A stretch of DNA of 40,939 bases from Candidatus Janibacter merdipullorum (GCA_019116945.1 DXAR01000048.1:1-40939); one strand, 5' to 3'; positions 2,383-40,939 are shown, counted from the stretch's first letter. Notes: generated from the sequence alone by a model not told the origin. Translations and numbers: made by a program.

Positions 2383-3246
2383 TCAGGTGCGCTCGCCGGC
2401 CGCCTGCTCCATGTGGTCCCAGTGGCGCTGGGCGCGGCGGTGCCAGCGGTCCCGGAGGGTGTGGAAGAGCGTCGCCGCCTCGGGGCCGGGCCAGTCCGGC
2501 GGGAGGAGCTCGGCGGGGAGGTCCGGGTCGACGAAGGGGAAGGACCGCCAGGCCTGGATGAGCTCGACCTGGGCGACGAAGGCCTCGGCGTCGTCGTCGA
2601 CGGTGCGGTCGGCGAAGTCCGCCGCGAACTCCTGGTAGCGGGTGCGGACCTCGTCGAGGTCCCAGGCGGCATCGATGAGCGAGGCGGGGTCGGTGCCGGC
2701 CGCCCGTCGCCCGACCCACGCGAAGGCGCGGTCGGCGAGGTCCAGCTCGGTGAGCATGGCCTGGACGTCGTCCTCCTTGTCGGCGTCGGGGATGATCCAC
2801 ATCCCGGGTGTCGGGCAGCCCAGCCCCAGCCAGGTCAGACGGGTGCGCAGCTTGTGCCGCGTGCTCCGCTGGGCCTCCGGGACCGCCGCCGCCACGACGA
2901 GCCACTGCCCGTCCCAGGTGCGCGCGCTGCGCAGGAAGCTGTAGATGCGCTCGGTGCCCTCCGCGAGGAGCGTCCGGCCCGGGGCCGTGAGCTGCCAGCG
3001 CACCCGCCGTCCGTGCCGCTCGGACTCGATGATCCCCTGGCTCGCCGTGCGGGCGATCGTCTGGCGCGCGGACTTCTCCTCGACACCGAGGGCGCCGAGG
3101 GCCGAGACGAGGGTACCCGTCCAGGCGGACCCGTCGCGGGGGTGGACGAACTCGCCGAGCACGGTGAGCAGCAGTGCTCGGGCGCTGGCTGCCGTCGACC
3201 GGTCGGCGGTCGTGCCGGCCGGGGAATCCTCCACCTTGGTGCTCAT
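2383..3246 (-). CDS. PaaX-family transcriptional regulator of the benzoate genes
   Basis: This 287-residue protein matches the PaaX family in length and layout. It has an N-terminal winged helix (about residues 20-95, including GTLVSALGALGVEEKSARQTI and a wing around RHGRRVRWQLT). A central PaaX domain follows (about 105-190, with WDGQWLVVAAAVPE, LTWLGLGCPTPGMWI), and then a C-terminal domain. PaaX proteins repress aryl-CoA catabolic genes and are released by the aryl-CoA intermediate, here most likely benzoyl-CoA. Start ATG is at 3246. The gene runs divergently from livK and convergently to boxB-GNAT. Three box promoters share a palindromic element that is the natural candidate for its operator, although binding is not shown. 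Confidence 0.88.
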   Translation of the reverse strand: MSTKVEDSPAGTTADRSTAASARALLLTVLGEFVHPRDGSAWTGTLVSALGALGVEEKSARQTIARTASQGIIESERHGRRVRWQLTAPGRTLLAEGTERIYSFLRSARTWDGQWLVVAAAVPEAQRSTRHKLRTRLTWLGLGCPTPGMWIIPDADKEDDVQAMLTELDLADRAFAWVGRRAAGTDPASLIDAAWDLDEVRTRYQEFAADFADRTVDDDAEAFVAQVELIQAWRSFPFVDPDLPAELLPPDWPGPEAATLFHTLRDRWHRRAQRHWDHMEQAAGERT

Positions 3247-3273
3247 CTGTCCTCGCTTCGTCGGGTCTGCAGA

Positions 3274-3472
3274 TCAGGGTGACATCTCCCGGACGAGATC
3301 GTCCGCCGAGGCGCGACGGGGCCCGCTGCCACACCGCACCGGGGCGCGGTGTCGGACTCAGGGTGACCTTACCGCAATCTGCTACGAAAATGTTTCGATA
3401 CGGCTATTGACTGTAGAACAATTGACGGTCATTCTCGGTGCTACCGACGACGGGGTCGGCGCTCAGCGTGAC
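3274..3472 (+). repeat. Three spaced copies of TCAGGGTGAC in the paaX-livK intergenic region
   Basis: TCAGGGTGAC occurs exactly at 3274-3283 and 3358-3367, and with one mismatch (TCAGCGTGAC) at 3463-3472. All three copies are on the same strand inside the 267-bp divergent region. Spaced direct repeats in a divergent promoter can be binding sites for a second regulator or for cooperative repressor binding. The assignment is speculative. Confidence 0.35.
3382..3419 (+). promoter_or_regulatory. livK (benzoate importer) promoter with operator-like element
   Basis: The element CTACGAAAATGTTTCG (3382-3397) contains the inverted repeat CGAAA-atg-TTTCG. It ends 16 bases before TAGAAC (3414-3419), and TGTAGAACA (3412-3420) is identical to the boxB site at 245-253. 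It matches the boxC element at 9 of 16 positions. Promoter function is inferred from position and recurrence. Confidence 0.55.
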
Positions 3473-3479
3473 CCCGTCG
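3448..3479 (+). promoter_or_regulatory. Leader hairpin upstream of livK
   Basis: CGACGGGGTC (3448-3457) and GACCCCGTCG (3470-3479) form a perfect 10-bp stem with a 12-base loop. The hairpin lies about 30 bases after the predicted -10 box and 25 bases before the GGAG ribosome site (3505-3508), so it falls in the 5' untranslated leader. It might stabilise the mRNA, attenuate transcription, or act as an operator. Confidence 0.5.
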
Positions 3480-3513
3480 GCCTCAATGACGAGATCGCAC
3501 CCCTGGAGTCACG

Positions 3514-4695
3514 ATGCGCGCCACCCGCACCCTTCCCCTGGCCCTGACCGCCACCCTCGCCCTCACCGCCTGCGGCGGCTCGGCCCTCTCCGGCGACGGA
3601 GGTGACGGCGGCGGCGACGACAAGGTCAAGATCGCCCTCCTCGTCCCCCAGTCGGGCGTCTACGCACCCCTCGGCAAGGACATGGAGGCGGGTTTCCGGC
3701 TCTACCTCGAGGAGAACGACAACCAGCTCGGTGGGCGGGACGTCGAGGTCACCGTCGTCGACGAGGGCGCCGGCCCCGAGGACGGCGTCCCCGCCGGGAC
3801 CAAGCTCGCGCAGGACGAGTCGGTCGACGCCGTCGTCGGCGTCGTCAACTCCGCGACCGCCCTCGGCCTCACCGACTCCTTCGACGAGGCGAAGAAGCCG
3901 CTCATCATCGCCAACGCGGGCGCCGACGCGATCACGGGCAAGGAGTCCTCGAAGTACGTCTGGCGCACGAGCTTCGCCAACGGCGAGGTCGGCGGCGCCA
4001 TCGGCGAGCACGTCGCCAAGGAGGTCGGTGACGGCAAGGTCTACCTCGTCGGCCCCGACTACGCCGCCGGTGACGAGTTCCTCGCCGGCTTCAAGAAGTC
4101 CTTCGAGGGCGCCGGCGGCAAGATCGCCGGGACCCAGATGACCCCCTTCGGGAAGACGACGAACTTCCAGCCGTACCTGCAGAAGGTCCGCAACGCCAAG
4201 CCGGACGCCGTCTTCGCCTTCTACGCCGGCTCCGAGGCCGTGACCTTCGTCAAGCAGTACGACCAGCTCGGGCTGCACGAGAACATCCCCTTCTACGCCA
4301 CCGGATTCCTCACCGAGGGTGGGGCGCTCGAGGCCCAGGGCAAGTCCGCCGAGGGGATCTTCACCTCCCTCCACTACTCCTCGGCCCTCGACAACGACGT
4401 CAACACCGACTTCGTCGCCGCCTACGAGAAGGAGAATGACGGCCCGCCGACGACATACTCCGTCCAGGCCTACGACGCCGCCGACGTGCTCGACCAGTCG
4501 CTCGAGGGCGCCTCGAACGGTGACGACATCGTCAAGGGCCTGGGCGAGATCGAGGAGATCGACAGCCCGCGCGGCCCCTGGTCCTTCTCCGACGAGCAGG
4601 GTCCGGACCAGACCTACTACCTGCGCAAGGTCGAGCAGAAGGACGGTGCCTGGACGAACTCCGTCGAGGACGAGCTGACGAAGCCCTCCTCCTGA
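3514..4695 (+). CDS. Substrate-binding lipoprotein of branched-chain-amino-acid-type ABC importer, probably for benzoate
   Basis: A lipoprotein signal is clear: a positively charged start, a hydrophobic core and lipobox LTAC with C20 as the lipidated residue, followed by a Gly/Ser/Asp-rich linker. The mature protein matches periplasmic-binding fold type I (Leu/Ile/Val-binding; LivK-like), with VKIALLVPQSGVYAPLGKDM at the start of lobe 1 and AVVGVVNSATALGL further in. Total length 393 fits the family. It heads a five-gene importer run (3514-8131) between boxB and boxC. Liv-type transporters of this kind commonly sit in aromatic-acid clusters, so benzoate or a related aryl acid is the likely cargo. 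The ligand cannot be read from sequence. Confidence 0.88.
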   Translation: MRATRTLPLALTATLALTACGGSALSGDGGDGGGDDKVKIALLVPQSGVYAPLGKDMEAGFRLYLEENDNQLGGRDVEVTVVDEGAGPEDGVPAGTKLAQDESVDAVVGVVNSATALGLTDSFDEAKKPLIIANAGADAITGKESSKYVWRTSFANGEVGGAIGEHVAKEVGDGKVYLVGPDYAAGDEFLAGFKKSFEGAGGKIAGTQMTPFGKTTNFQPYLQKVRNAKPDAVFAFYAGSEAVTFVKQYDQLGLHENIPFYATGFLTEGGALEAQGKSAEGIFTSLHYSSALDNDVNTDFVAAYEKENDGPPTTYSVQAYDAADVLDQSLEGASNGDDIVKGLGEIEEIDSPRGPWSFSDEQGPDQTYYLRKVEQKDGAWTNSVEDELTKPSS

Positions 4696-4723
4696 TCCGT
4701 CCGCACCACTCTGGGAGTTCCTC

Positions 4724-5629: not shown

Positions 5630-6588
5630 GGAAGTACGCCTCCTCGATCCTCGCGATCATCGCCGTCCTCCTCCTCGTGGCCGTGCCGCTGATCTTCCCG
5701 GCGGACATGGCCAACACCCTGAGCCGGGTCCTCGCGCTCGCGCTCCTCGCGGTGAGCCTCGACCTGCTCGTCGGGGTCTCGGGGATGCCCTCCCTCGGGC
5801 ACGCCGCCCCCTTCGGCGTCGGTGCCTACACGGCCGCGCTCGTGGCCCGCGACGTCGACGCCTTCGCCCCGGTCCCGCTCCTGGCGGCGGTCGTGGCCGG
5901 TGGCCTCTTCGCCCTCGTCACCGGCGTCCTCATGGTCCGGACGAAGGGGACCTACTTCCTCATGCTCACCCTCGCCATCGCCGAGCTCGTCCACGTGCTC
6001 GCGCAGCGCTGGGAGGGGCTCACCGGGGGGACGAACGGGCTCTACGGCATCCCCTCGATCACGCTCACCCCAGGTGGTGAGGCGGTGACCCTCGCCGGCA
6101 TCCGCTACTGGTGGATCCTCCTCGTCTTCCTCGTCGGCTTTGCCGTCGTGTGGTGGACGTCGAAGTCGACCCTGGGCCGCTCCCTTCGCGGCCTGCGGGA
6201 CAACGAGGAGCGGATGGGGTCCATCGGCTACTCGACCTTCCGGCTCAAGCTCGTCGTCTACGCGATCGCCGGCGCCGTCGCCGGTGCCGCCGGCTCCATG
6301 TGGGTGGCGCAGAACCGCTTCGTCTCACCGGAGGACCTCGCCTTCGAGGTCTCGGCGATGGCCCTCCTGGCCGTCGTCGTGGGTGGCCGCGGACGGCTCT
6401 GGGGTGCGGTGCTCGGCGCGGCGCTCGTGACGATCATCCGCGACGACATCGGGGCCTCCCTCGACGGGCGTGGACCCCTCCTGCTGGGTCTCGTCTTCAT
6501 CGCCGTCGTGTACCTGCTGCCCCGCGGCTTCGCCGGCACCGACTGGCGCGGGCTGCTCGCCCGTCGCCCCCAGGAGGAGAAGGCATGA
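5626..6588 (+). CDS. LivM-type ABC transporter permease
   Basis: The ATG at 5626 overlaps the LivH stop, giving a 320-residue protein. Longer upstream reading in this frame overlaps livH and is not coding. Typical LivM segments are present: LAVSLDLLVGVSGMPSLGHAAPFGVGAYTAA near the N-terminus, and the cytoplasmic loop around GRSLRGLRDNEERMGSIGYSTFRLKL. About eight to ten membrane spans are seen. It pairs with the LivH-like permease. Leu in GRSLRG is coded by the rare CTT, creating a CCCTTCG heptamer at 6182. Confidence 0.9.
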   Translation: MRKYASSILAIIAVLLLVAVPLIFPADMANTLSRVLALALLAVSLDLLVGVSGMPSLGHAAPFGVGAYTAALVARDVDAFAPVPLLAAVVAGGLFALVTGVLMVRTKGTYFLMLTLAIAELVHVLAQRWEGLTGGTNGLYGIPSITLTPGGEAVTLAGIRYWWILLVFLVGFAVVWWTSKSTLGRSLRGLRDNEERMGSIGYSTFRLKLVVYAIAGAVAGAAGSMWVAQNRFVSPEDLAFEVSAMALLAVVVGGRGRLWGAVLGAALVTIIRDDIGASLDGRGPLLLGLVFIAVVYLLPRGFAGTDWRGLLARRPQEEKA

Positions 6589-7418
6589 CCACGACCGACA
6601 CGGGCGCCCCGGTCCCCGCGCTGACCCTGCGCCATGTCACGAAGAAGTACGGCGCGCTCGTCGCCGTCGACGACGTGAGCCTCGAGGTGGCGAAGGGGGG
6701 ACGCCACGCCCTCATCGGTCCCAACGGTGCCGGCAAGTCGACCCTCTTCAACCTCGTCGCCGGCGGTCTCGGCACGACCTCGGGGGAGATCCTCTTCTCC
6801 GGCGAGGACGTGACGCGACGGTCCGCCGCGTGGCGGGCTCGGAAGGGCCTGGGCAAGACCTTCCAGCACAGCTCCCTCTTCCTCTCGATGAGCCCCTTGG
6901 AAAACGTCGCCCTCGCGGCCCAGCGCGTCGCGGGCAAGGGCATGTCCTGGCGGACCTCCTCCGCGCGACGGCGGCCGGGGATCGACGACCTCGCCGAGCA
7001 GTGCGTCGCCGACGTCGGGCTCACCGACCGGTCGCACATCATGACGGGCAACCTCAGCCACGGTGAGCGACGTCAGCTCGAGGTCGCCGTCGCGCTCGCG
7101 ACGAAGCCGCGGCTCCTCCTCCTCGACGAGCCCGCCGCGGGCATGTCCCCGGCGGAGAGCCACCGCTTCGCCGAGCTCGTCCGCTCGCTGCCGGAGGACC
7201 TCACGGTCGTCATCATCGAGCACGACCTCGAGCTCGTCTTCCAGCTCGCCGAGCGGGTCTCCGTCCTCCACCTCGGGGCCCTCATCGCCGACGGCCCGAC
7301 CGACGAGGTGCGGGAGGACCCGGCCGTCCAGCAGGCCTACCTCGGGGAGGCCTCCCTCGACGAGCTCTTCCACGAGTCACCCACGCCACCGAACGAGACC
7401 GAGGAGGCCGCCCGATGA
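6585..7418 (+). CDS. LivG-type ABC transporter ATP-binding protein
   Basis: A 277-residue ATPase starting at an ATG that overlaps the livM stop. Walker A GPNGAGKST is at residues 45-53. The ABC signature is LSHGERRQLEV, Walker B is LLLLDEPAAGM, and the switch His lies in IIEHDLELVF. The extra insertion between Walker A and the signature (about residues 95-145, MSPLENV onwards) is typical of LivG. The C-terminal tail (about 20 residues) is Pro/Glu-rich. It acts at the inner face of the membrane with the LivF partner. Confidence 0.93.
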   Translation: MTTTDTGAPVPALTLRHVTKKYGALVAVDDVSLEVAKGGRHALIGPNGAGKSTLFNLVAGGLGTTSGEILFSGEDVTRRSAAWRARKGLGKTFQHSSLFLSMSPLENVALAAQRVAGKGMSWRTSSARRRPGIDDLAEQCVADVGLTDRSHIMTGNLSHGERRQLEVAVALATKPRLLLLDEPAAGMSPAESHRFAELVRSLPEDLTVVIIEHDLELVFQLAERVSVLHLGALIADGPTDEVREDPAVQQAYLGEASLDELFHESPTPPNETEEAAR

Positions 7419-8237: not shown

Positions 8238-9956
8238 GTGAGCGACACCACCTTGGAGAAGCCGACCGTGGAGGGTGGCGGCCAGGAGCCGGCGCCCGTC
8301 GTCGAGTTCCGCACGGGGCCCGACCGGTACCGCCACTTCACCGTCGAGTACGACGGCGACGTCGCCACGGTCAAGCTGACCGTCGACGAGCAGGGCGGTC
8401 TCGTCCCCGGCTACGAGCTGAAGATGAACAGCTACGACCTCGGCGTCGACATCGAGCTCTACGACATCGTCCAGCGCATGCGCTTCGAGCACCCCGAGGT
8501 CAAGTCGGTGATCATGACCTCCGGCAACGAGAAGATGTTCTGCGCCGGGGCCAATATCCGGATGCTCGCCGGCTCCCCGCACAGCTGGAAGGTGAACTTC
8601 TGCAAGTTCACCAACGAGACCCGCAACGGCATCGAGGACGCGACGGCCAATTCCGGCCAGAAGTGGATCGCCGCCCTCAACGGCACCGCGGCCGGTGGCG
8701 GCTACGAGCTCGCCCTCGCCTGCGATGACATCGTCCTCATCGACGACAACAGCTCGACCGTCTCCCTCCCCGAGGTGCCGCTCCTCGGCGTCCTCCCGGG
8801 CACGGGTGGGCTGACCCGCGTCGTCGACAAGCGCCATGTCCGCAAGGACCGCGCCGACCTCTTCGCGACGAAGTCCGAGGGCTACCGCGGTGACACCGCC
8901 GTCGACTGGGGTCTCGTCGACGCGACCATCCCGCGCAACAGCTGGGACGAGGAGATCACCTCCCGGGCCAGGGCGGCGGCCGCCGAGTCCTCCCGCGGCG
9001 GTGCCGCCGGCGAGGGCGTCCAGCTCACCGAGCTGGCCCGCACCATCGACGGCGACACGATCACCTACGACCACGTCACGGCGACGATCGACCGGGCCAA
9101 CCGCCGGGTGGACATCACCGTGGCCGCGCCGACCGAGGCGCCGCCGGCGGACGCCGAGGCGGCCCGCGCCCAGGGGGTGGCCTACTACCCGCTGGCCCTC
9201 GCCCGGGCGCTCGACGACCTCATCCTCCACCTGCGGACCAACGAGCTGCTCATCGGCACGTGGGTCATCCGCACGACCGGTGACCAGGCCCTCGTGCTCG
9301 AGCACGACGACCGGCTCGTCGAGTGGGCGGACCACTGGTTCGTCAACGAGGTCAACCAGTACCTCAAGCGGACGCTCAAGCGTCTCGACGTCACCTCGCG
9401 CACCCTCATCGCGGTCATCGAGCCGGGGTCGGCCTTCGTCGGCACCCTGCTCGAGCTGGCCCTCGCGGCCGACCGGCAGTACATGCTCGAGGGCGTCTAC
9501 GAGGACGTCGACCCCGACGCCGACCCGGCGACGATCCGCCTCACCGACGCCAACGACGGCCGCTACCCGATGGGCAACGGCCTGAGCCGGCTCGAGTCCC
9601 GCTTCTTCGGTCGCGACGAGGACCTCGACGCCGCGCGTGCGGCGAAGGGCACGGACCTCGACTCGGCCGCCGCGGACCAGGCCGGTCTCGTGACGATGGC
9701 GCTCGACGACATCGACTTCGAGGAGGAGCTGCGCATCGTCCTCGAGGAGCGCGCCGCGCTCAGCCCCGATGCCCTCACCGGCATGGAGGCCAACCACCGG
9801 TTCGTCGGACCGGAGACGACGGAGACCAAGATCTTCGGCCGCCTCACGGCTTGGCAGAACTGGATCTTCATCCGTCCCAACGCCTCCGGTCCTGACGGTG
9901 CCCTCCGGCGCTATGGCTCGGGCCAAAAGGGCGAGTACAACCTCGAGAGGGTCTGA
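8238..9956 (+). CDS. boxC: 2,3-Epoxybenzoyl-CoA dihydrolase (benzoyl-CoA-dihydrodiol lyase) BoxC
   Basis: BoxC hydrolytically opens 2,3-epoxybenzoyl-CoA to 3,4-dehydroadipyl-CoA semialdehyde plus formate. The protein (572 residues from the chosen start) has the family's size and two crotonase-like halves. The first half shows CAGANIRML (oxyanion hole), the NGTAAGGGYELALA segment with E157, and LPEVPLLGVLPGTGG with E179. I chose GTG 8238 because GGAAGG lies seven bases before it; an upstream in-frame GTG at 8196 would lie inside the leader hairpin. It heads an eight-gene operon that continues to 16071. Confidence 0.93.
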   Translation: MSDTTLEKPTVEGGGQEPAPVVEFRTGPDRYRHFTVEYDGDVATVKLTVDEQGGLVPGYELKMNSYDLGVDIELYDIVQRMRFEHPEVKSVIMTSGNEKMFCAGANIRMLAGSPHSWKVNFCKFTNETRNGIEDATANSGQKWIAALNGTAAGGGYELALACDDIVLIDDNSSTVSLPEVPLLGVLPGTGGLTRVVDKRHVRKDRADLFATKSEGYRGDTAVDWGLVDATIPRNSWDEEITSRARAAAAESSRGGAAGEGVQLTELARTIDGDTITYDHVTATIDRANRRVDITVAAPTEAPPADAEAARAQGVAYYPLALARALDDLILHLRTNELLIGTWVIRTTGDQALVLEHDDRLVEWADHWFVNEVNQYLKRTLKRLDVTSRTLIAVIEPGSAFVGTLLELALAADRQYMLEGVYEDVDPDADPATIRLTDANDGRYPMGNGLSRLESRFFGRDEDLDAARAAKGTDLDSAAADQAGLVTMALDDIDFEEELRIVLEERAALSPDALTGMEANHRFVGPETTETKIFGRLTAWQNWIFIRPNASGPDGALRRYGSGQKGEYNLERV

Positions 9957-12920: not shown

Positions 12921-13781
12921 GTGCTCGACGGTCACCACCTCGTCGACGCGCACGTCCACGTGCCCGTCCTCCCTTCGTTGTCGCAGTCGTGGATCGACTG
13001 GGCGCGCCAGTTCGGCCCCGAGGGCCTGCTCGAGCGGGCCTGGGACGGCGAAGGGAGGCCGCGTCCGGCCGTCCTCGACGAGCTCTTCGCGGGGCAGGGC
13101 GTCGACACCGCGATCCTCTTCTGCGAGTACAGCCCCAAGGCGACCGGCATGCAGCTCTTCGACGACCTGCTGCCGATCGTCGAGCACAACCCGCAGCGCT
13201 TCCGGCCGATGGCCAACGTCAACCCGCACCTGCACCACCCGATCGGTGCCGAGGTGCGCCGACAGCTCGGCCACGGGGCGGCGGGGCTCAAGCTCCATCC
13301 CGTCCACGGCGGCTTCCGGTGCGACGACCCGATGCTCTACCCGGCCTACCAGGTCCTCGTCGAGGAGGGGGCACCCCTCGTCGTCCACTGCGGTACGTCG
13401 ACCTTCTCCGGGTCCTCGAACCAGTTCGCGGACCCCACCTACCTCCTCGCCGTGACCCGGGACTTCCCCGACCTCGACATCGTCCTGGCCCATGGCGGCC
13501 GGGGCTGGTGGTACGAGCAGGCGGCCTTCATGGCGATGAGCAACCCGCGTATCTGGATCGAGCTCTCCGGGCTGCCGCCCAAGCGGCTGCCCGAGTACTA
13601 CGCCGCCGCCGGGCTGCACCGGCTCGCGCGCAAGATGATCTTCGCGACCGACTGGCCGGGAGTCCCCGGGGCGGACACCAACGCCCGGGCCGTGGCCGAT
13701 CTCGTGCCCCCCGAGCAGGTGCCGGCGGTCCTGGGGGGCAACGCCCTTCGCATCTACTCGCACCTGCCGGAGGTGGCCTGA
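12921..13781 (+). CDS. Amidohydrolase-2 family metal-dependent hydrolase/decarboxylase
   Basis: A 286-residue TIM-barrel protein of the amidohydrolase-related (ACMSD-like, COG2159) group. Visible ligands include H11-x-H13 in DAHVH, a histidine in LKLHPVHGGF, VVHCGT, VLAHGGRGWW and a late aspartate in FATDWPGVPG. The GTG start lies six bases after the ferredoxin stop, and one base separates its stop from the next gene. Relatives decarboxylate or hydrate aromatic ring-cleavage acids. Its substrate in a box operon is unknown; rescue of an off-pathway product (for example of the epoxide or semialdehyde) is a guess. Leu near the C-terminus uses rare CTT, creating CCCTTCG at 13744. Confidence 0.8.
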   Translation: MLDGHHLVDAHVHVPVLPSLSQSWIDWARQFGPEGLLERAWDGEGRPRPAVLDELFAGQGVDTAILFCEYSPKATGMQLFDDLLPIVEHNPQRFRPMANVNPHLHHPIGAEVRRQLGHGAAGLKLHPVHGGFRCDDPMLYPAYQVLVEEGAPLVVHCGTSTFSGSSNQFADPTYLLAVTRDFPDLDIVLAHGGRGWWYEQAAFMAMSNPRIWIELSGLPPKRLPEYYAAAGLHRLARKMIFATDWPGVPGADTNARAVADLVPPEQVPAVLGGNALRIYSHLPEVA

Positions 13782-19436: not shown

Positions 19437-19479
19437 CGGCGGCTCCCCCCTTCGACATCGTCGTCCCGTCCCCCTTGAC

Positions 19480-29436: not shown

Positions 29437-29477
29437 CGAAGGGGAGGCCCCGCCGCAGCGGCGGGGCCTCCCCTTCG
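29437..29477. terminator. Perfect 20-bp stem bidirectional terminator
   Basis: CGAAGGGGAGGCCCCGCCGC (29437-29456) pairs with its complement (29458-29477) around a single A. It lies between the ferritin-like gene stop (29415) and the stop of the convergent GlsB-type gene (29487). The outer ends consist of the heptamer CGAAGGG/CCCTTCG that recurs through the window. Confidence 0.82.
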
Positions 29478-33900: not shown

Positions 33901-34086
33901 GCCGTGCAGGGGCAGGAGCCGATCGGCGAAGGGGAGGACCCACGGTACTTCCACGACCTCATCTCGCGCACGGCCGACGGCATGGCCGCGGCGACCTTCG
34001 CCGCCCAGCCGGAGGACGGGCGGTGCCGGATCTGCCCGGTCCGCTCCTCCTGCCCCGCCCACGAGGAAGGAGGTCGGCTGCGATGA
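30928..34086 (+). CDS. adnA: AdnA subunit of the AdnAB helicase-nuclease
   Basis: A 1052-residue protein, close to M. tuberculosis AdnA. The N-terminal UvrD-type motor shows motif I GGPGTGKT (K49), motif II as DDAQ (D253-Q256, where DExQ is usual), motif III GDPDATVQGFRGA and motif VI ALTRATERVL. The C-terminal RecB-type nuclease has HDIAHELGD, VDRLEAD and D937-x-K939 in VIDYKTG. Cysteines C815, C1033, C1036 and C1042 (C...CRICPVRSSC) match the AddB-type iron-sulfur staple. With AdnB it would resect double-strand ends for recombination. GTG 30928 is the first plausible start. The stop overlaps the adnB ATG. Confidence 0.92.
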   Translation: MAAQTPFVQLRPPTSAGAEATLVPDEDQVAAIAARGDLVRILGGPGTGKTRVAVASVLDRIAREECAPEEIVLVSATRLGAAAARDAVTAGLPGATTEPLARTMQSLGFAVLRQQAALRGEPTPRLLSGADQDVVLGELLAGHREGGDGPVWPEDLELALPTRGFREELRDLLMRAIEHGVTPDVLARLGVEHGRPEWSAAAQVAREYDEVTALSRPGAFDPAWVLTAAAELLEGDEQARERVRSGTRTVVVDDAQELTAPAARLLRALTGEGIDLVLVGDPDATVQGFRGADPRHLVEDWPGREGPTLVLGHGHRLPESVHSAVSRVTPRIAALGGGLQRRAAPAAPGGAVAAHVLHSGAQEAAFIAHELRAAHLLHGVPWRQLAVIVRGAARQATLRRVLASRGVPVLGDAHRVPVRDEPAARPLLQLLGLVIDLARGEVDALEATEVTDLLTSPLFGADTVTVRRLRRTLRREELSAGGTRTSDELLGALALDPERLLHLGDDAAPLHRLATVIAGGLAAAVTSEDGRGWAPGVSAESVLWEVWQAAGVADAWRSTALAGGAAGARADRALDAVVALFDAAAAHQDALPASGPDAFLDAVASQSVAADSLAARSPDPDAVALVTPQTAAGLEWHTVVLAGVQEGVWPDLRLRGSLLGSERLVDVVTGRDRTGVGAAAAVRHDETRLFHVALTRATERVLVTAVAAEDEQPSVYLDLVDPLPDDVVRREPSDVPPPLDLTGLVAQLRQQLAEPDPAAVARAVARLAHLAAAGVPGASPSSWWALRDLTDMRAVRGPEDRVAVSPSKVAQFGECGLRWLLQSSGGDGPRSVSMEVGTLIHDIAHELGDAGEEAFQAELERRWPELGMAPGWVTDQKRERARTMAHWLAQYHLRAASEGWRPVATEEGFRVEIGRAVLRGNVDRLEADEDGRLRVIDYKTGASAPTAAELAEHPQLGSYQVAIAEGGFAEHGTDGAGAALVHLGRARTSRNAVQGQEPIGEGEDPRYFHDLISRTADGMAAATFAAQPEDGRCRICPVRSSCPAHEEGGRLR

Positions 34087-37000
34087 GCGCACCGACGATG
34101 AGCGCGGTCGACCTGGCCCGGGCCCTGGGCCAGGAGCACCCGCCTACCGAGGAGCAGCGACGGATCATCGAGGCCCCCCTCGAGCCCCTGCTCGTCGTGG
34201 CCGGCGCCGGCTCGGGCAAGACCGAGACGATGACGGCCCGCGTCGTCTGGCTCGTCGCCAACGGCCTCGTGGCGCCGGAGGAGGTCCTCGGCCTGACCTT
34301 CACCCGCAAGGCGGCCGGTGAGCTCGCCGAGCGGGTGGGTCGCCGGCTCGCGACCCTCGAGCAGGTCGGCATCTGGTCCCCGCCGCAGGAGGCCGAGGCC
34401 GACAGCCTCGGCGGCGCACCGACGATCTCGACCTACCACTCCTACGCGGGTCGGCTCGTCCGCGAGGGCGCCCTCCGGCTGGGCTATGAGAAGGACTCGC
34501 GCCTCCTCTCCGAGGCCGCGACCTGGCAGCTGGCCCATGAGGTCGTCGTCGCCTGGGACGGACCGATGGAGGGGATCGACAAGGTCGAGTCGACGGTGAC
34601 CAATGCCGTCGTCTCGCTCGCCGGGGAGCTCGCGGAGCACCTGCGCACCCCGCAGGACATCGCGGACTTCTCCCGGCGGACCCTCGCCCACCTCGAGGGG
34701 GTCGCGGCCTCGGGCAAGGACTTCACCAAGGACTTCCGCGGCAAGGTCATCACCCCGATGGCCGAGCAGCAGCTCATCCTCCCGATCGTCGAGCGCTATC
34801 GCGAGGTCAAACGGGAGCGCTCGGTCATGGACTTCGCCGACCAGATGGCGCTGGCGGCCGCACTCGCGAGCCGGTTCCCCGATCTGGGGCGGGCCGAGCG
34901 CGACCGCTTCCGCGTCGTCATGCTCGACGAGTTCCAGGACACCTCCGAGGCGCAGCTCGTCCTCATGCGCGAGCTCTTCGCGCCGACGGGGGAGCGGCCG
35001 GCCGCGGTCACGGCCGTCGGCGACCCGCACCAGTCGATCTACGCCTGGCGCGGGGCGAGCGCGACGACCCTCGAGTCCTTCCCGGTGCACTTCGCGACCG
35101 CCGGCCGGGAGGCTCCGGTCGAGCACCTGTCGACGAGCTGGCGCAACGACGAGACGATCCTCGAGGTCGCCAATGTCGTCGCCGGTCCGCTCGGGGAGGC
35201 GAGCGGGGTGCCGGTGACCTCCCTTCGTCCACGGCCGGGGGCCCAGCGCGGCCAGGTCGAGGCGCTGCGCTCGCTCACGGCCCACGACGAGGCCGACCGG
35301 ATCGCCGAGTGGATCCAGATCCGTCGCGGCGCCGGCGAAGGGGGGATCCCCCGCCGGAGTGCGGCGGTCCTCTGCCGCAAGCGCAGCCAGTTCACCCTCG
35401 TCGCCGAGGCGCTCGCCGCGCGCAACATCCCCCACGAGGTCGTCGGGCTCGGCGGGCTGCTCCTCACGCCCGAGGTCGCCGATGTCATCTCGCTGCTGAC
35501 GATCGTCCAGGACCCCGCCCGCGGGGACCGCCTCATGCGGTTGCTCACCGGGGCGCCCGGGCTCCTCGGCCCGGCCGACCTCGACGGCTTCGGTGCGTGG
35601 GCCCGTCACCTCGGGCGGCAGGCGGTGGCCGAGGTGTCCGACGGGGGAGTGCCGCCCGGGCCCGACGACGCCGTGACGATCGTCGACGCCCTCGACCAGC
35701 TGCCCGAGCCGGGCTGGACCGGTGACAGCGGGCAGCGGGTCTCCGATGGGGCGCTGCAGCGCCTGCACCACATCGCCGGCATGGTGGCGCGGCTGCGCCG
35801 CGGAGCGGGCATGCCCCTGCCCGACCTCGTGGGCGAGGCGGAGCGCGAGCTCGGCGTCGACATCGAGGTCCTCTCCCGGCCCGGGTGGTCGCCGGCGGCG
35901 GCCCGGGCCCACCTCGATGCCTTCGCCGACGTGGCCGCGCAGTTCTCCGCCAGCGCGGACCGGCCGACCCTGGGGGGCTTCATCGACTGGATCGAGGCAG
36001 CCGTCGAGCAGGAGCGCGGTCTCGAGGCGCCCGTCGTCGAACCCGTGCGGGAAGCGGTGCAGATCCTCACCTGTCACGCGGCCAAGGGTCTGGAGTGGGA
36101 TGTCGTGGCGGTCCCGGGCCTGTCCGAGGGGGTCTTCCCCGCCCACAGCTCACGCTCCTCGTGGTCCGAGGACCGGGGGTGGTCGCTGGGCCAGGTCAAC
36201 GAGTCGGGCTGGATCTCCGGTCTCGACGGCGTGCCCTTCCCCCTCCGGGGAGACCGCGAGGGCCTGCCGCACCTCGACCTCTCGCTCGGCGAGACCAAGG
36301 AGCTCCAGGAGGAGCTCAAGCGCTTCCGGGCGGCGAACGGCGACCACGGCCTCCTCGAGGAGCGCCGCCTCGCCTACGTCGCGGTGACCCGCGCACGGAG
36401 TCAGCTGCTCCTCGGGTCCTGGGTGTGGGGCGCGACCGGGCAGAGCCCGCGACTGCCCTCGCGCTTCCTCGACGAGGCGCGGGGGACGGGCGTCGTCGAG
36501 ACGCTCGACTGGGCCGAGATGCCGGAGTCCAAGGAGGTGCGCAACCCCGCGCTCGAGGTCTCCCGTCAGGTCCTGTGGCCCGGCGAGGAGCAGGCGCCGG
36601 AGCGACCCGGGCTCGAGGCGGCCGCCGCGCAGATAGTGGATTCCCCGCCAGCGGACGACCTGGGGTCGGACCCGCTGGACGAGCAGATGCTTCTCCTCCT
36701 CGAGGAGCGGGAGCGTCGACGGAGCGCGCGCGACGAGGGAGCCTCCGTCGAGCTGCCGGCCCATCTGTCGACCTCCGAGCTCGTCTCGCTCGCGCGCGAT
36801 CCGCAGGACTTCGCGCTCGCCCTGCGCCGGCCGATGCCGCAGCCACCGCAGGTGGCGGGGCGTCGGGGAACGGCCTTCCACACCTGGGTCGAGCAGCACT
36901 ACGCCGACGCCGGCCTCGTCGACGTCTTCGAGCTGCCGGGGAGCGCCGACGAGGACCTCGGCGACGCCGACCTCACCGCCATGCAGGAGCACTTCCTCGC

Positions 37001-37629: not shown

Positions 37630-37655
37630 ATCCTTCGTGAAGGGAAGGAGACACC

Positions 37656-38180
37656 GTGACCGAGGATGACGAAGAGAGCTTCCGGGAGTTCGCGCTGGCC
37701 GCGCTGCCGCAGCTGAGGCGAGTGGCCGTGGCCCAGGTCCGGGACGGCCACCGAGCGGACGACCTGGTCCAGATGACGTTGGAGAAGCTCTACGTGGACT
37801 GGCGACGCATCAACCGTCAGGCCCGAGACCCCTTCGCCTATGCGCGCAGGGTCCTCGTCAACACGCTCGTCAGCGACAGCCGCCGCCTCCGCTGGCACCG
37901 CGAGGTGTCCGTCACGGACGCGGGCGAGAGCGCGCGGGTCGAGGACGCCACCGGGCAGGTCGACCTGCGCACCGACCTGGGAGCGGCGCTCGATGCGCTG
38001 CCACCCCGTCAGCGGCTGACGGTCGTGCTGCGATTCGTCGAGGACCTCTCGGTGACGCAGACCGCGGCGCTCATGGGGTGCAGCGAGGGGACGGTCAAGA
38101 GCGCGACCAATGCCGCACGCGGCACCCTGCGCGAGCTGCTGGGGGAGCCGGTAACAACGATGAAGGGGTGGGACGCATGA
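37656..38180 (+). CDS. SigE/SACE-type ECF RNA polymerase sigma factor (second copy)
   Basis: A 174-residue sigma factor with region 2 (LPQLRRVAVAQVRDGHRADDLVQMTLEKLYVDW) and region 4 (LPPRQRLTVVLRFVEDLSVTQTAALMGCSEGTVKSATNAARGTL). The GTG start follows AAGGAG (37645-37650). Its stop overlaps the ATG of a membrane protein, exactly as in the operon at 18220-19436. The two pairs are likely paralogous systems with different inputs. The target genes are unknown. Confidence 0.9.
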   Translation: MTEDDEESFREFALAALPQLRRVAVAQVRDGHRADDLVQMTLEKLYVDWRRINRQARDPFAYARRVLVNTLVSDSRRLRWHREVSVTDAGESARVEDATGQVDLRTDLGAALDALPPRQRLTVVLRFVEDLSVTQTAALMGCSEGTVKSATNAARGTLRELLGEPVTTMKGWDA

Positions 38181-38920
38181 CCCAGGAGACCATGTGGAAG
38201 CACGCTGCCGAGGCGCGAGCGCAGGACGCCGGTACGACAGCGATCGACATCGACGAGGTGATGCGCCGAGGGCGCTCCCGGGTGCGCCGCCGGCGGGTGG
38301 TCCGCGGGGGGCTGGGTGCCGCGCTGGCCACGGTGGCGGTGGCCGGCGCAGTGGCACTCACGCCCCTGGGGCCGGACTCCGACACTGCCGACCCCGCAGG
38401 TTCTGGATCGCCCCGGTCCATGGCCGGCTGCACCCTGCAGCCGAGCACGTGCGACGGGGAGATCGTCACGCGGTGGATGGAGGAGGACCTCGACGTGCAC
38501 CGGCCATCGGCGGTCGAGTTCAGCGCCGTGACCTCCTCGGACCCCGATGCCGATGTGTTGCCGGAGGGCTCCTGGCAGATGGTGTCGATCCCGGTGGGCC
38601 TGCGCGAAGGGCAGCAGCAGGCGAGCATGGACGTTCTCGTCGCCCCGGCTGCCGGAGACAGCCCGATCTTCGAGGTGGTGGCCAACCAACCCGATCGCGA
38701 GTGGGAGGAGCGCGTCGTGGAGATCCGGCCGGGCATCACGGCCGAGGTGAGCACCAGCAGAACCGACGGCGACAGGTTCGAGATGTGGGCGATCCGAGAG
38801 GGGCGCGGCCACGGTGCGGTCGTCATGACCTTCGAAGGGTCCACGGTGCCGAAGTGGTCCGACGACACGGCCCGGCTCCTGCTCGACGACCTGCTGACGG
38901 GGGCGCCGAGCTCCGGGTGA
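38177..38920 (+). CDS. Single-pass membrane protein partner of the second sigma factor
   Basis: A 247-residue protein overlapping the sigma factor stop by four bases. A short cytoplasmic part with a basic cluster (RGRSRVRRRRVVRGG), one membrane span (about residues 45-63) and an extracytoplasmic domain of about 180 residues with two cysteines (GCTLQPSTCDG) follow. No known anti-sigma domain is seen; a sensor or anti-sigma role is inferred from coupling. Two Glu residues use GAA within CGAAGGG heptamers (38605, 38833), although GAG dominates elsewhere. Confidence 0.75.
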   Translation: MTQETMWKHAAEARAQDAGTTAIDIDEVMRRGRSRVRRRRVVRGGLGAALATVAVAGAVALTPLGPDSDTADPAGSGSPRSMAGCTLQPSTCDGEIVTRWMEEDLDVHRPSAVEFSAVTSSDPDADVLPEGSWQMVSIPVGLREGQQQASMDVLVAPAAGDSPIFEVVANQPDREWEERVVEIRPGITAEVSTSRTDGDRFEMWAIREGRGHGAVVMTFEGSTVPKWSDDTARLLLDDLLTGAPSSG

Positions 38921-38937
38921 GGAAAGGAGGGTGTGGG

Positions 38938-40368
38938 TCAGGAGCGCTGCGTCGGCGGAACGACGTCGTCGTCGTCCTCGTCCGCGATCGGGGTGATCTC
39001 GTCGGTGATGTGGTCACTGCCCTTCGCCGGGATCGCCGCCGGGGCGTCGTCGGGCGCCTTGTCCGTCGTCGGCTCGGCGGGCGAAGGGAGGTCCTCGTCG
39101 GCCTGCTCCTCAGGTGCCTCGGCCGCGGGGGTCTCGGCCGCGGCCTCATCGGTCGGCTCCTGTGCTGGCTGCACCGGGGTGGGCTCGGCCGGGTGCTCCA
39201 CCTGGACGGCTTCGTCACTCTCGTCGGAGGCGTCCGGCACGGCGACGGGGCCGGTCGCGACCGGTTGGGTGTCGGCCGGCCGGTCATCCGCCGGCTGCGC
39301 CTCGACCGACCCCGTCTCGGCCGGGGGCTGCGTCTCGACGGGCTGGGTGTCGGCCTTCGCCGGGGTGTCCTCGGCGTCGGGCTCGCTCGCCGCTGCCACG
39401 GCGGCCGGCGCAGGCGCGGGGGTCGCCTGCCCGGCAGCCTCCTCCTCGCGGGCCAGCCGGTCGTCCAGCCGGCGCAGGTGCATCGCGTGCTCCTCCGCTC
39501 CCTCGTCGTCACCCGCGGCGACGGCCGTCATCATCGCCCGGACGAGCTGCATCTCGCCGATGACCTTGGCGCGCTGCTGCAGGTGGCGGTCGGGGCGCTC
39601 CACCCGGGCGTGGGCGTAGGCCTCCATGACCGTGTCGACGGCCTCCGGGTCGAGCTCGGCCAGGATCGGCGCGAGGTCGTCCGCGGGGTCGGCGACCTGA
39701 GCCGACTCCCACCCGAGGAAGGCCTTGACGTCGACCTCGTTGCCGTCGTCTGGCGTCGCGAGGACGGTGTCGTCGCCGAGCGCCCCGTGGGTGGGCGTGC
39801 TCGTGAAGGTCCACAGCGACTCGTCGTCGAGGACCTTTTCCCAGCGCGTGAGCAGGCCGGTGGGGACCCGACCCGTCGCGGCGGCCCGGTCGAGCTCGGC
39901 CAGGCGGCGAGCCCGGTAGGAGGCGGCGTCGTAGACGGGGACACCGGCCTCCTCGTAGACCCGGACGTCGAGGTTGTGCAGCTGGGCGATGGCCCGGCCC
40001 AGCCCGGTGGCGAGGGCGGACCCGGCCGTGACCCCGGCGAGGCTGACCATGCGGCCGGTGAGGTAGCTGTGGACGGCGGCGCGCCCCCCTTCGGGCAGGG
40101 CCACCCAGCCCTTGACCGCGGGGACGGGCATCGTGAGGCGCCGGGCGAGCAGGCCGAGCAGCGCGGCCGAACGCTCCAGGTGGGCGGATGCCGCGGGGGA
40201 GACCGGGCAGCGGATGACCCAGCGCCGGTGCTCCTGGTCGGAGACGAGGGCGACGTCGAAGGGGTCCCCGGGTCCGGTGGGCACGACCCCTTCGACGGTG
40301 TCGGGGTCGAGGCCGGGCACGGCGGCGCTGGCCAGTGCGGCGAGAGTCAGCGGTCCACGGGAGGTCAC
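38938..40368 (-). CDS. Phosphotransferase-fold protein with long disordered acidic tail
   Basis: About 476 residues from GTG 40368, preceded by GGTGGG. Residues 1-300 resemble the aminoglycoside/macrolide phosphotransferase (APH) fold: RWVIRCPVS, LTGRMVSLAGV, AIAQLHNLD, FTSTPTHGALGDDTVLA in the catalytic-loop position, and FLGWESAQVADPADDLAPIL in place of the usual DFG-type segment. The catalytic HGDLHxxN is changed to HGALGDDT, so kinase activity is doubtful. The last 165 or so residues are Pro/Ala/Glu/Thr-rich, include two ADTQPV[E/A]T repeats and end very acidic (DEDDDDVV). It is convergent with the second sigma operon and divergent from nudC. Confidence 0.78.
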   Translation of the reverse strand: MTSRGPLTLAALASAAVPGLDPDTVEGVVPTGPGDPFDVALVSDQEHRRWVIRCPVSPAASAHLERSAALLGLLARRLTMPVPAVKGWVALPEGGRAAVHSYLTGRMVSLAGVTAGSALATGLGRAIAQLHNLDVRVYEEAGVPVYDAASYRARRLAELDRAAATGRVPTGLLTRWEKVLDDESLWTFTSTPTHGALGDDTVLATPDDGNEVDVKAFLGWESAQVADPADDLAPILAELDPEAVDTVMEAYAHARVERPDRHLQQRAKVIGEMQLVRAMMTAVAAGDDEGAEEHAMHLRRLDDRLAREEEAAGQATPAPAPAAVAAASEPDAEDTPAKADTQPVETQPPAETGSVEAQPADDRPADTQPVATGPVAVPDASDESDEAVQVEHPAEPTPVQPAQEPTDEAAAETPAAEAPEEQADEDLPSPAEPTTDKAPDDAPAAIPAKGSDHITDEITPIADEDDDDVVPPTQRS

Positions 40369-40404
40369 GAGCCCACCGTACGAGGACGACGGCGGGGATC
40401 GGGG

Positions 40405-40440
40405 GAGCAACGCCCGTCCGGCGGCGGACGGGTGGCGCTC
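40405..40440. promoter_or_regulatory. Interrupted palindrome in the divergent phosphotransferase/nudC promoter region
   Basis: CCCGTCCG (40413-40420) and CGGACGGG (40425-40432) form an 8-bp inverted repeat around GCGG. GAGC (40405-40408) and GCTC (40437-40440) extend it symmetrically after 4-base gaps. Its location 37-72 bases from the phosphotransferase start and 16-51 bases from the nudC start fits an operator or a leader hairpin. Confidence 0.45.
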
Positions 40441-40455
40441 CGTAGGGTGGGAGAC

Positions 40456-40939
40456 GTGGACCACGACCCGATGCGCGACCTGCCCATGTCGGCTCCGACC
40501 GTCGACCGCGATGGTCTCGCCCGCGGCGAGGAGGGGCTCTTCGAGCGACTCCTCGCCGACCCGGCCACGCGGATCGTCGAGCTCGTGGGGGCACGGGTCC
40601 CGCTGCGCCCGGACCGCTCGCTCGCGCTCCGCCCGCCGCAGCCCGAGGACACCGAGACCCTCCTGCTCTACCTCGGCCGGCACGACGGCACCGCGCACGT
40701 CGCCGCGTGCCGGCCCGAGACGCCGGGCGACCAGGGGCCGCGCGAGGAGGACCTGGACGCCGCCCCCTTCGCCGACCTGCGCGAGGTCGCCACCGACCTC
40801 AGTCCGACGGAGGCCACGCTCTTCGCCACCGCCCTCGGCCTGGCCAACTGGCACGTGCGCCACCCGCGGTGCCCGCGCTGCGGTGAGCCGACCGAGGTCG
40901 TCCAGGCCGGCTGGGTGCGCCGGTGCCCCCACGACGGGT
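40456..40939 (+). CDS. nudC: NADH pyrophosphatase NudC (partial, 3' end outside window)
   Basis: The frame is open to the window end (161 residues visible). The N-terminal NudC-type domain and the zinc ribbon (HPRCPRCGEP ... WVRRCP) are present; the Nudix box lies beyond the window. NudC hydrolyses NAD(H) to nicotinamide mononucleotide and AMP and can remove NAD caps from RNA. GTG 40456 is the longest start with an AGGGTGGGAG site; ATG 40471 and ATG 40486 are alternatives. Association with adnAB matches the mycobacterial order around Rv3199c. Confidence 0.85.
   Translation, partial: MDHDPMRDLPMSAPTVDRDGLARGEEGLFERLLADPATRIVELVGARVPLRPDRSLALRPPQPEDTETLLLYLGRHDGTAHVAACRPETPGDQGPREEDLDAAPFADLREVATDLSPTEATLFATALGLANWHVRHPRCPRCGEPTEVVQAGWVRRCPHDG

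What the first reader, a model, noticed from the sequence alone, without database searches (positions are those of the whole stretch)
2533..40772. Heptamer CCCTTCG/CGAAGGG strongly over-represented and kept with rare codons
By eye I count close to 48 copies on both strands, against roughly 10 expected if bases were independent at about 72% GC. Many copies use codons that are rare here: Leu CTT at 6182, 13744, 21487 and 35221; Glu GAA at 20345, 33927, 35336, 38605 and 38833. This suggests selection for the DNA word itself: a chromosome-organising, FtsK-orienting, Chi-like, methylation or uptake motif. It also ends the terminator stem at 29437-29477.
Basis: partly seen in the sequence, partly recalled or inferred. 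Interest (0 to 1): 0.8.

Follow-up and report, generated by a model that had tools for sequence, protein, structure and literature searches.

The report
Genus-wide DNA word, probably uptake tag
A seven-letter DNA word (CCCTTCG) is repeated thousands of times across this bacterium's genome, even where it forces rare codons; it looks like the 'self' tags that a few proteobacteria use to recognise their own DNA during uptake, which would be new for Gram-positive bacteria if a laboratory test confirms it.

Summary
The in-frame class CCC|TTC|G is ordinary codon context, but the remaining frames stay enriched (window 33 vs 9.4; 282 kb 200 vs 60) and intergenic DNA is denser still. Leu CTT fills 35% of xCC|CTN|CG contexts against 0.9% elsewhere; rare codons inside the word are kept in orthologues (0.57 vs 0.17). 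Loose extended consensus: C-B-CCCTTCG-Y-C. No origin-terminus polarity (so not FtsK-orienting); inverted pairs build terminators. The word marks all 16 Janibacter genomes searched and genus g59. In the same family 80 of 159 genomes instead carry at least 1,000 GTATGCCG, and two genomes lacking it inside such genera show other leading words. This is the anatomy of DNA uptake sequences with dialects; a 2025 paper (PMC12616744, passage seen) calls Neisseriaceae and Pasteurellaceae the only families known to use such motifs. ComEA, ComEC and three Tad pilus loci are present. Sequence-specific uptake is inferred, not shown; a Chi-like signal for AdnAB is the main rival, and the prophage test could not be run.

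The parts
2532..2538 (-). word; P-F-V, in-frame CCC TTC G
4144..4150 (+). word; P-F-G, in-frame
5809..5815 (+). word; P-F-G, in-frame
5942..5948 (-). word; T-K-G (ACG AAG GGG)
6182..6188 (+). word; S-L-R with rare Leu CTT
6691..6697 (-). word; A-K-G
9643..9649 (-). word; A-K-G
10530..10536 (-). word; P-K-G
12971..12977 (+). word; L-P-S with rare Pro CCT
13049..13055 (-). word; G-E-G with rare Glu GAA
13744..13750 (+). word; A-L-R with rare Leu CTT
15241..15247 (+). word; P-F-V, in-frame
15697..15703 (+). word; P-F-A, in-frame
16486..16492 (+). word; T-K-G
16642..16648 (+). word; P-K-G
17113..17119 (+). word; A-K-G
17987..17993 (-). word; A-K-G
18876..18882 (-). word; P-F-E, in-frame
19448..19454 (+). 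word; intergenic
19633..19639 (+). word; intergenic
20095..20101 (-). word; A-K-G
20241..20247 (+). word; P-F-A, in-frame
20345..20351 (-). word; D-E-G with rare Glu GAA
21487..21493 (+). word; P-L-R with rare Leu CTT
22423..22429 (-). word; A-K-G
23001..23007 (+). word; P-F-A, in-frame
23046..23052 (+). word; P-F-D, in-frame
23813..23819 (+). word; P-F-A, in-frame
24512..24518 (-). word; R-R-G (CGA AGG GGG); inverted pair with 24533
24533..24539 (+). word; P-F-D, in-frame
25534..25540 (-). word; P-F-E, in-frame
26478..26484 (-). word; P-L-R with rare Leu CTT; inverted pair with 26495
26495..26501 (+). word; D-E-G with rare Glu GAA
27081..27087 (+). word; T-K-G
27243..27249 (+). word; T-K-G
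27690..27696 (+). word; A-K-G
29437..29443 (-). word; left foot of terminator stem
29471..29477 (+). word; right foot of terminator stem
29437..29477 (.). perfect inverted-repeat hairpin between convergent genes, both feet are the word (probable intrinsic terminator)
   Evidence: RNA fold -49.4 kcal/mol, z -6.8, 0 of 200 shuffles as stable; gene ends 29415 (+) and 29487-29738 (-) on my gene calls
30943..30949 (+). word; P-F-V, in-frame
33264..33270 (+). word; S-P-S with rare Pro CCT
33927..33933 (-). word; G-E-G with rare Glu GAA
35221..35227 (+). word; S-L-R with rare Leu CTT; kept in 7 of 7 aligned Janibacter orthologues
35336..35342 (-). word; G-E-G with rare Glu GAA; kept in 0 of 7 aligned orthologues
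37830..37836 (+). word; P-F-A, in-frame
38605..38611 (-). word; R-E-G with rare Glu GAA
38833..38839 (-). word; F-E-G with rare Glu GAA
39020..39026 (+). word; A-K-G on my gene call (frame uncertain)
39082..39088 (-). word; L-P-S on my gene call (frame uncertain)
40087..40093 (+). word; P-E-G on my gene call (frame uncertain)
40257..40263 (-). word; P-F-D on my gene call (frame uncertain); inverted pair with 40288
40288..40294 (+). word; V-E-G on my gene call (frame uncertain)
40765..40771 (+). word; G-E-G on the minus gene call, but P-F-A in a plus-strand open frame that looks more like the real gene

Best explanation
CCCTTCG (loosely C-B-CCCTTCG-Y-C) is a DNA uptake sequence: a short tag that a competence pilus or surface DNA receptor of Janibacter prefers when it binds free DNA. 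DNA with the tag enters, passes ComEA and ComEC, and is recombined in; because tagged alleles enter more often, the word spreads through the chromosome by transformation-coupled drive until about 1.2 copies per kb are reached, wherever the protein tolerates it and most freely between genes, where inverted pairs have been taken over as terminator stems. The rest of the family uses other words, above all GTATGCCG, so receptor and word would have switched together (dialects). SHOWN: genome-wide word, frame-independent excess, cost in rare codons, retention in orthologues, intergenic and terminator enrichment, no replication polarity, genus- and family-level distribution, com and tad genes. INFERRED: uptake, receptor, drive, and that the other words are the same system.
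For: (1) 3,510 copies in 2.94 Mb, 1,789 forward and 1,721 reverse; 1,957-4,020 in 15 further Janibacter genomes against 329-1,179 in one genome each of 20 other genera of the family. (2) Codon-aware tests: in 282 kb of G000, 287 genic against 88.2 +- 6.6, against 142.9 +- 6.3 with context kept, and 200 against 60.0 +- 6.3 without the in-frame class; in 400 kb of G008, 343 against 173.1 +- 6.6 and 230 against 65.1 +- 6.4. Rank 1 of 105 anagrams in both genomes; top genic and top intergenic 7-mer in G000. (3) Leu CTT in 48 of 138 xCC|CTN|CG contexts (35%) against 0.9% elsewhere; Glu GAA in 54 of 127 C|GAR|GGG contexts (42.5%) against 2.3% elsewhere. (4) Rare codons inside the word kept at 0.565 (64 codon sites) against 0.170 outside (334). 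(5) Intergenic 2.9/kb (G000, 74 in 25.2 kb) and 4.5/kb (G008, 172 in 38.3 kb) against about 1/kb in genes; inverted -/+ pairs are 19 of 28 and 31 of 52 neighbour pairs within 45 bp. Known DUS form terminators the same way (PMC3630211 and PMC2397512, passages). (6) No polarity. (7) Family words: CNCCCTTCG 1,246-2,903 in 11 Janibacter and 1,623-2,388 in 3 g59 genomes, 61-378 in the other 145; GTATGCCG at 1,000 or more in 80 of 159 genomes, 30 of 53 genera, but 9-38 in Janibacter (my hand tally). (8) ComEA (SLBB + helix-hairpin-helix), ComEC, Tad ATPases and TadE pilins; in Micrococcus luteus, also Micrococcales (recalled), Flp/Tad pili are required for transformation (PMC6370729, passage).
Against: No uptake experiment exists here, and 0 papers of the open-licence library hold both 'Janibacter' and 'natural transformation'. 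The core is 7 bases, shorter and looser than DUS (10-12) or USS (9). The 15 (window) or 87 (G000) in-frame genic copies are codon context. In Janibacter G001 the word is only 44 genic against 18.5 in 80 kb and not among its top 7-mers. Com and Tad genes do not discriminate: ComEC in 57 of 58 and PF00437 in 158 of 159 genomes, with or without a word. No receptor was identified. The test on prophages or recently acquired DNA could not be run. Word sites are far from invariant: 347 sites kept at 0.576 on average at 83.4% identity; in the window 53 of 122 aligned copies kept against 32.5% for phase-matched 7-mers. One-mismatch neighbours are not enriched overall (1,348 against 1,282). Loss of GTATGCCG within genera (G105 19 copies, G158 37) is faster than slow erosion would suggest, unless these lineages are deep.
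Confidence: 0.6

Rival explanations
1. Chi-like recombination signal: the word is read by AdnAB (encoded at 30928-37346 in this window by my reading) or another helicase-nuclease, which stops degrading and loads RecA there; different genera evolved different words.
For: Density of about 1.2/kb suits a 7-base Chi (recalled). [quoted passage not shown] Known Chi words differ widely between phyla (recalled).
Against: Chi acts from one side only and is usually co-oriented with replication (recalled); here no polarity, 244:271 and P 0.71 for any split. Intergenic density is 3-5 times the genic one, and inverted pairs in terminators are not a known Chi feature. Word switches between and within genera would need AdnAB to change specificity each time.
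Confidence: 0.17
2. Binding site of an abundant chromosome-organising or other DNA-binding protein, with the protein's specificity drifting between genera.
For: Dispersed, near-Poisson distribution (119 windows of 8 kb: mean 8.8, variance 11.4, none empty), both strands, genus-wide.
Against: A site needed for structure would not favour inverted pairs in terminators; several thousand invariant sites with such a switchable word have no described parallel that I know of (recalled); no candidate protein was sought.
Confidence: 0.12
3. FtsK-orienting (KOPS-like) polar sequence.
For: Over-representation; the reverse complement CGAAGGGNG is G-rich like E. coli KOPS GGGNAGGG (recalled).
Against: Polarity is the defining feature and is absent: 244:271, P 0.25, in 20 x 20 kb of the complete genome G008 (dnaA at 481); best split 54%, null mean larger.
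Confidence: 0.01
4. Methylation or restriction-modification target favoured as a self mark.
For: Genus-specific words.
Against: Restriction normally leads to avoidance, not enrichment (recalled). The word is not palindromic. No methyltransferase search or base-modification data.
Confidence: 0.04
5. Codon usage, codon-pair bias or mutational bias, no function of the word.
For: True for one class: CCC|TTC is about 2-fold enriched whatever base follows, because NNG|TTC is nearly absent.
Against: All other frames, both orientations and intergenic DNA remain strongly enriched under a context-keeping shuffle; rare CTT and GAA are used 20-50 times more often inside the word; anagrams are not enriched (median ratio 0.88-1.01).
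Confidence: 0.03
6. Terminator stems alone: the word spread as part of hairpins.
For: 29437-29477 and similar hairpins; inverted pair in 5 of 17 (G000) and 7 of 35 (G008) convergent gaps against 0 of 37 and 5 of 56 divergent ones.
Against: Most copies are single and inside genes: 287 of 361 in G000, 343 of 515 in G008.
Confidence: 0.01

Closest known systems
DNA uptake sequence (DUS) of Neisseriaceae, with dialects
   Same: Thousands of copies, both strands, in genes and more densely between them, inverted pairs as terminators, genus-level dialects that follow phylogeny (PMC3630211, PMC2397512, passages). The family's GTATGCCG word shares ATGCCG with the Neisseria 12-mer as I recall it (GCCGTCTGAA is the form printed in PMC6370729); probably chance.
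   Different: Different phylum; 7-base core; Janibacter word unrelated in sequence; Tad/Flp-type loci instead of the type IVa pilus with ComP (recalled); uptake not shown.
Uptake signal sequence (USS) of Pasteurellaceae
   Same: Density: 500-800 Hin-USS per Mb or 200-500 Apl-USS per Mb (PMC12616744, passage); here 1,195 CCCTTCG or 816 CNCCCTTCG per Mb. Two dialects in one family.
   Different: 9-base core AAGTGCGGT or ACAAGCGGT; Gram-negative uptake machinery; specificity proven by experiment there.
Chi sites of RecBCD and AddAB
   Same: Short over-represented words that differ between lineages (recalled).
   Different: Polar and read by a translocating enzyme (recalled); here no polarity, and no enzyme is known to read it.
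KOPS (FtsK-orienting polar sequences)
   Same: Short over-represented chromosomal word (recalled).
   Different: Strong polarity is required (recalled) and is absent here.

Membership tests
DNA uptake sequence (DUS/USS class) | Short word present in hundreds to thousands of copies genome-wide, far above expectation | tested here: met
   3,510 copies in G000, reversed control 294; codon-aware shuffles exceeded
DNA uptake sequence (DUS/USS class) | Both strands equally, no replication polarity | tested here: met
   1,789:1,721; 244:271 along G008, P 0.25; any split P 0.71
DNA uptake sequence (DUS/USS class) | Enriched in permissive and intergenic DNA; inverted pairs as terminators | tested here: met
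   2.9 and 4.5/kb intergenic against about 1/kb genic; 19 of 28 and 31 of 52 close pairs are inverted -/+
DNA uptake sequence (DUS/USS class) | Word itself conserved in orthologues | tested here: met
   Rare codons inside the word kept 0.565 against 0.170; but only 53 of 122 window copies kept against 32.5% background
DNA uptake sequence (DUS/USS class) | Shared by a clade, with dialects in related clades | tested here: met
   Janibacter and g59; GTATGCCG in 30 of 53 genera; other leading words in G016, G105, G158. That these other words do the same job is inferred
DNA uptake sequence (DUS/USS class) | Competence machinery encoded | tested here: met
   ComEA, ComEC, Tad ATPases, TadE; ComEC in all 16 Janibacter genomes; not discriminating, most genomes without a word have them too
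DNA uptake sequence (DUS/USS class) | Absent from recently acquired DNA | not tested
DNA uptake sequence (DUS/USS class) | Preferential binding and uptake of DNA with the word | not testable with these tools
   Needs an uptake assay
DNA uptake sequence (DUS/USS class) | Cognate surface receptor such as ComP | not tested
   No receptor sought beyond listing com and tad loci
Chi site | Co-orientation with replication | tested here: not met
Chi site | Recognised by the cell's helicase-nuclease | not testable with these tools
   AdnAB response to Chi is unknown (PMC4824097, passage)
KOPS | Strong strand polarity from origin to terminus | tested here: not met
Methylation or restriction motif | Modified base at the motif and a matching methyltransferase | not tested
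   No modification data; no methyltransferase search made

The most novel reading that the evidence does not exclude
An actinobacterial family (Janibacter and relatives; Intrasporangiaceae in the NCBI taxonomy) has a family-wide DNA uptake-sequence system with many dialects: ancestral GTATGCCG-type words, a 14-base elaboration GTATGCCGCTGRGC in genus g16, GTACGGCG and GTAGACC variants, and a complete switch to CNCCCTTCG in Janibacter and g59. It would be the first outside Neisseriaceae and Pasteurellaceae, in Gram-positive cells, evolved independently on Tad/Flp pili.
Probability: 0.5. Interest if true: 0.95.

Novelty: new variant of a known kind. Interest (0 to 1): 0.85.

Why it matters
Uptake sequences have been tied to two proteobacterial families for decades; a 2025 paper still names only these (PMC12616744, passage). 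A third, independent case in monoderm bacteria with dozens of genera and several word switches would give a natural experiment on how a receptor and thousands of genomic sites change together, and on whether sequence-specific 'bacterial sex' arises by drive or for repair. It would also turn little-studied environmental actinobacteria into transformable organisms for which one knows which DNA to offer. If the word is instead the missing Chi of AdnAB, that would answer an open question about recombination in mycobacteria and streptomycetes.

Tried and rejected
FtsK-orienting motif: rejected on polarity. Codon usage or codon pairs as the whole cause: rejected with a context-keeping shuffle, but accepted for the class CCC|TTC|G. 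An even-spacing signal: none, gaps are close to exponential (CV 1.01 and 0.98). Bias to gene ends: no clear pattern (deciles). Correlation of word density with GC: none (rho -0.006). PF00437 as a marker that separates genera with and without words: not discriminating, 158 of 159 have it. Excess of one-mismatch neighbours: none overall. Plasmid test with the window's ParA as bait: it returned only distant ParA proteins (4,999 of the 5,000 kept records under 60% identity) and no Janibacter plasmid among the 40 rows seen, so nothing was learned. The first maximum-order Markov ranking did not bring up the word, because its 6-mers are enriched too; the codon-shuffle ranking did.

Limits of my own methods. 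Genes were called by a small script of mine, not by a published caller; it found no genes at all in G029 (60% GC) and its call at 38938-40863 is doubtful. The P value (2.4e-12) overstates the evidence, since the same orthologous codon is counted from several reference genomes and the named Janibacter records may be the same strains as some G handles. The LeuS tree is one gene; 15 of its 27 inner branches have strong support, the outgroup G036 falls inside, and G074 LeuS looks transferred. The reversed control for GTATGCCG is itself raised in some genera (up to 578); in G030 this is because the extended word GCCGTATGCCG contains it. In 20-kb scans of 16 other genera, 8 showed no clear word, among them G020 and G033, which do carry 939 and 1,581 GTATGCCG genome-wide. 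Literature: CCCTTCG stands in 2,255 papers of which I saw 15 titles, so a report of this word in an unrelated context cannot be excluded.

Full report
WHAT WAS CLAIMED AND WHETHER IT IS THERE. The window has 52 copies of CCCTTCG/CGAAGGG (31 and 21), against 7.66 +- 2.79 in dinucleotide shuffles. Codon-preserving shuffles give 13.3 +- 2.5 against 48 genic copies.

In Janibacter, codons ending in G almost never precede TTC (for example CCG TTC 1 observed against about 72 expected in 282 kb of G000), so CCC TTC is about 2-fold enriched whatever base follows. The in-frame copies CCC|TTC|G therefore say nothing about the word. A shuffle that keeps this context still leaves 48 against 23.6 +- 2.5 in the window, 287 against 142.9 +- 6.3 in G000 and 343 against 173.1 +- 6.6 in 400 kb of the Janibacter genome G008. 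Without the in-frame class the figures are 33 against 9.4, 200 against 60.0 and 230 against 65.1, above the largest of 300, 150 and 150 shuffles.

THE WORD ITSELF. In G000, CCCTTCG is the top genic 7-mer against codon shuffles (287 against 88.2, z 21) and the top intergenic 7-mer (73 against 9.0 by a trinucleotide model). It ranks first of 105 anagrams in G000 and G008. Flanks of 361 copies prefer C at -2 (0.69; G only 0.03), C, T or G at -1 (A 0.02), C or T at +7 (0.71) and C at +8 (0.65); CTCCCTTCG reaches 55 against 2.5 in genes. The clearest sign of selection or drive is codon choice: Leu CTT in 48 of 138 xCC|CTN|CG contexts (35%) against 0.9% elsewhere in G000, 40% against 0.7% in G008; Glu GAA in 54 of 127 C|GAR|GGG contexts (42.5%) against 2.3% elsewhere and 4.6% when the next codon is GG[ACT]. 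Orientation relative to genes is even, 147 sense and 140 antisense in G000, so the word acts in DNA, not in mRNA.

WHERE IT LIES. Intergenic density is 74 in 25.2 kb in G000 and 172 in 38.3 kb in G008, against about 1 per kb in genes; it is highest between convergent genes, 5.4 and 6.3 per kb. Of neighbours within 45 bp, 19 of 28 (G000) and 31 of 52 (G008) are inverted -/+ pairs, most of them hairpins like the one in the window. Otherwise gaps are close to random. In 119 windows of 8 kb from several Janibacter genomes the mean is 8.8 and the variance 11.4, and none is empty. There is no replication polarity: 244:271 about the origin of G008 (P 0.25), and no split point does better than chance (P 0.71).

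EVOLUTION. The organism is a Janibacter: a window protein is 79-88% identical to 8 named Janibacter records in a single scan, and NCBI places the genus in Intrasporangiaceae. All 15 other Janibacter genomes searched have 1,957-4,020 copies; one genome each of 20 other genera of the family has 329-1,179, and 22 genomes of other families of the order have 213-1,014. Among orthologous stretches from 17 Janibacter sources, rare codons inside the word are kept at 0.565 (64 codon sites) against 0.170 outside (334); in the window alone the counts are 18 of 25 against 11 of 66. Of the lost copies, 668 of 813 aligned without a gap, so most differences are substitutions, not insertions. Single sites do come and go: 53 of 122 aligned window copies are kept, against 32.5% for phase-matched 7-mers.

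OTHER WORDS IN THE SAME FAMILY. CNCCCTTCG is common only in Janibacter (11 genomes, 1,246-2,903) and in genus g59 (3 genomes, 1,623-2,388); the other 145 family genomes have 61-378. In g59 genome G074, CGAAGGGG is the top genic 8-mer, 85 against 17.5. GTATGCCG, nearly absent from Janibacter (9-38), has at least 1,000 copies in 80 of 159 family genomes and 30 of 53 genera (my hand tally). Outside the family none of 290 genomes of the class exceeds 386. It is the top genic 8-mer in G069 (70 against 3.7) and G072 (50 against 6.0), and GGATGCCG is it in G016 (31 against 8.5). Genus g16 has a long form, GTATGCCGCTGRGC, with 882 and 969 exact copies of its first 11 bases in G030 and G099, split 439:443 and 490:479 by strand. 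Two genomes lacking GTATGCCG inside GTATGCCG genera show other leading 8-mers: GTACGGCG in G105 (96 against 26.9 in genes, 24 in 15.1 kb between genes) and GGTCTACG in G158 (32 against 5.8); these two are weaker cases. In a one-gene LeuS tree GTATGCCG genomes are spread over all main branches and Janibacter with G135 sits among them (support 94/94 for its clade), which suggests that GTATGCCG is old and CNCCCTTCG a replacement.

HOW IT MOST LIKELY WORKS. These are the traits of uptake sequences: thousands of copies, both strands, permissive places, terminator pairs, dialects by clade. PMC3630211 and PMC2397512 (passages) describe the same for Neisseria. The genome encodes ComEA, ComEC and three Tad-type loci with ATPases and TadE pilins; in Micrococcus luteus, transformation depends on Flp/Tad pili (PMC6370729, passage; the PMC4322843 title and passages do not mention uptake sequences). 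I therefore read the word as a self-DNA tag preferred by a competence pilus or surface receptor and spread by recombination of what is taken up. Shown: anatomy, distribution, conservation, genes. Inferred: uptake, receptor, drive, and that the family's other words do the same.

WHAT SPEAKS AGAINST IT. Nobody has shown transformation of Janibacter in the papers I could search (0 papers with both terms; searches likewise gave no report of uptake sequences in actinobacteria among the rows seen). Com and Tad genes are as common in genera without a word. Janibacter G001 has a modest excess only. Copies in prophages could not be counted. The best rival is a Chi-like signal for AdnAB; the window itself carries two large UvrD/RecB-like helicase genes that I read as AdnB-AdnA (30928-37346; one search gives only UvrD/PcrA/AddA/RecB models below their cut-offs, the name is recalled). 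The lack of polarity, the intergenic excess and the terminator pairs speak against Chi, but whether AdnAB obeys Chi at all is unknown (PMC4824097, passage).

NOVELTY. PMC12616744 (2025; [quoted passage not shown] If uptake is confirmed, this is a third and independent case, with dialects over dozens of genera. I score it as a new variant of a known kind, interest 0.85.

Noticed in passing
G000 (window, L009-L028), G008, G001, G012, G074; compare G069, G030, G016: Codons ending in G almost never precede Phe TTC in Janibacter and g59 G074 (fraction G of C+G endings 0.01-0.06; G004 0.16, g59 G135 0.24) against 0.26-0.51 in six genomes of other genera; in G008 and G012 also before AAC, and in G008 before TAC. 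The cause is unknown.
   Followed up: partly
L087-L090 and L134 (G030); G058, G070, G086, G099, G117 by count: A 14-base dispersed word GTATGCCGCTGRGC in genus g16; its first 11 bases have 882 and 969 copies there and 198-561 in genera g43, g55 and g71.
   Followed up: partly
G105 (L182-L188), G158 (L189-L195): Genomes that lack GTATGCCG although congeners have 1,062-3,681 (g47) or 1,251-1,660 (g57) copies, with other leading 8-mers GTACGGCG and GGTCTACG: possible recent word switches.
   Followed up: partly
L111 12-4158, L112 374-4967, L113 6005-12842: Three separate Tad-type pilus loci in the window's genome.
   Followed up: partly
L060 2719-2766: A short tandem repeat of period 19 in G008 in which each unit carries the word.
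   Followed up: no
G000 282 kb: The palindrome TGCGCA is also over-represented against codon shuffles (258 against 105); 9-mers CAACACCTA and CAACAACCT appear 8 times each against 0.1-0.2 expected.
   Followed up: no
window 292-1788 and 14869-16071: Benzoyl-CoA epoxidase BoxB and 3-oxoadipyl-CoA thiolase PcaF, with ABC-transporter-like, CoA-ligase-like and thioesterase-like genes around by eye: an aromatic-acid degradation cluster.
   Followed up: no
window 38938-40863: My gene call is doubtful: the upstream part looks like a plus-strand gene running off the window end, so frames of six copies there are uncertain.
   Followed up: partly
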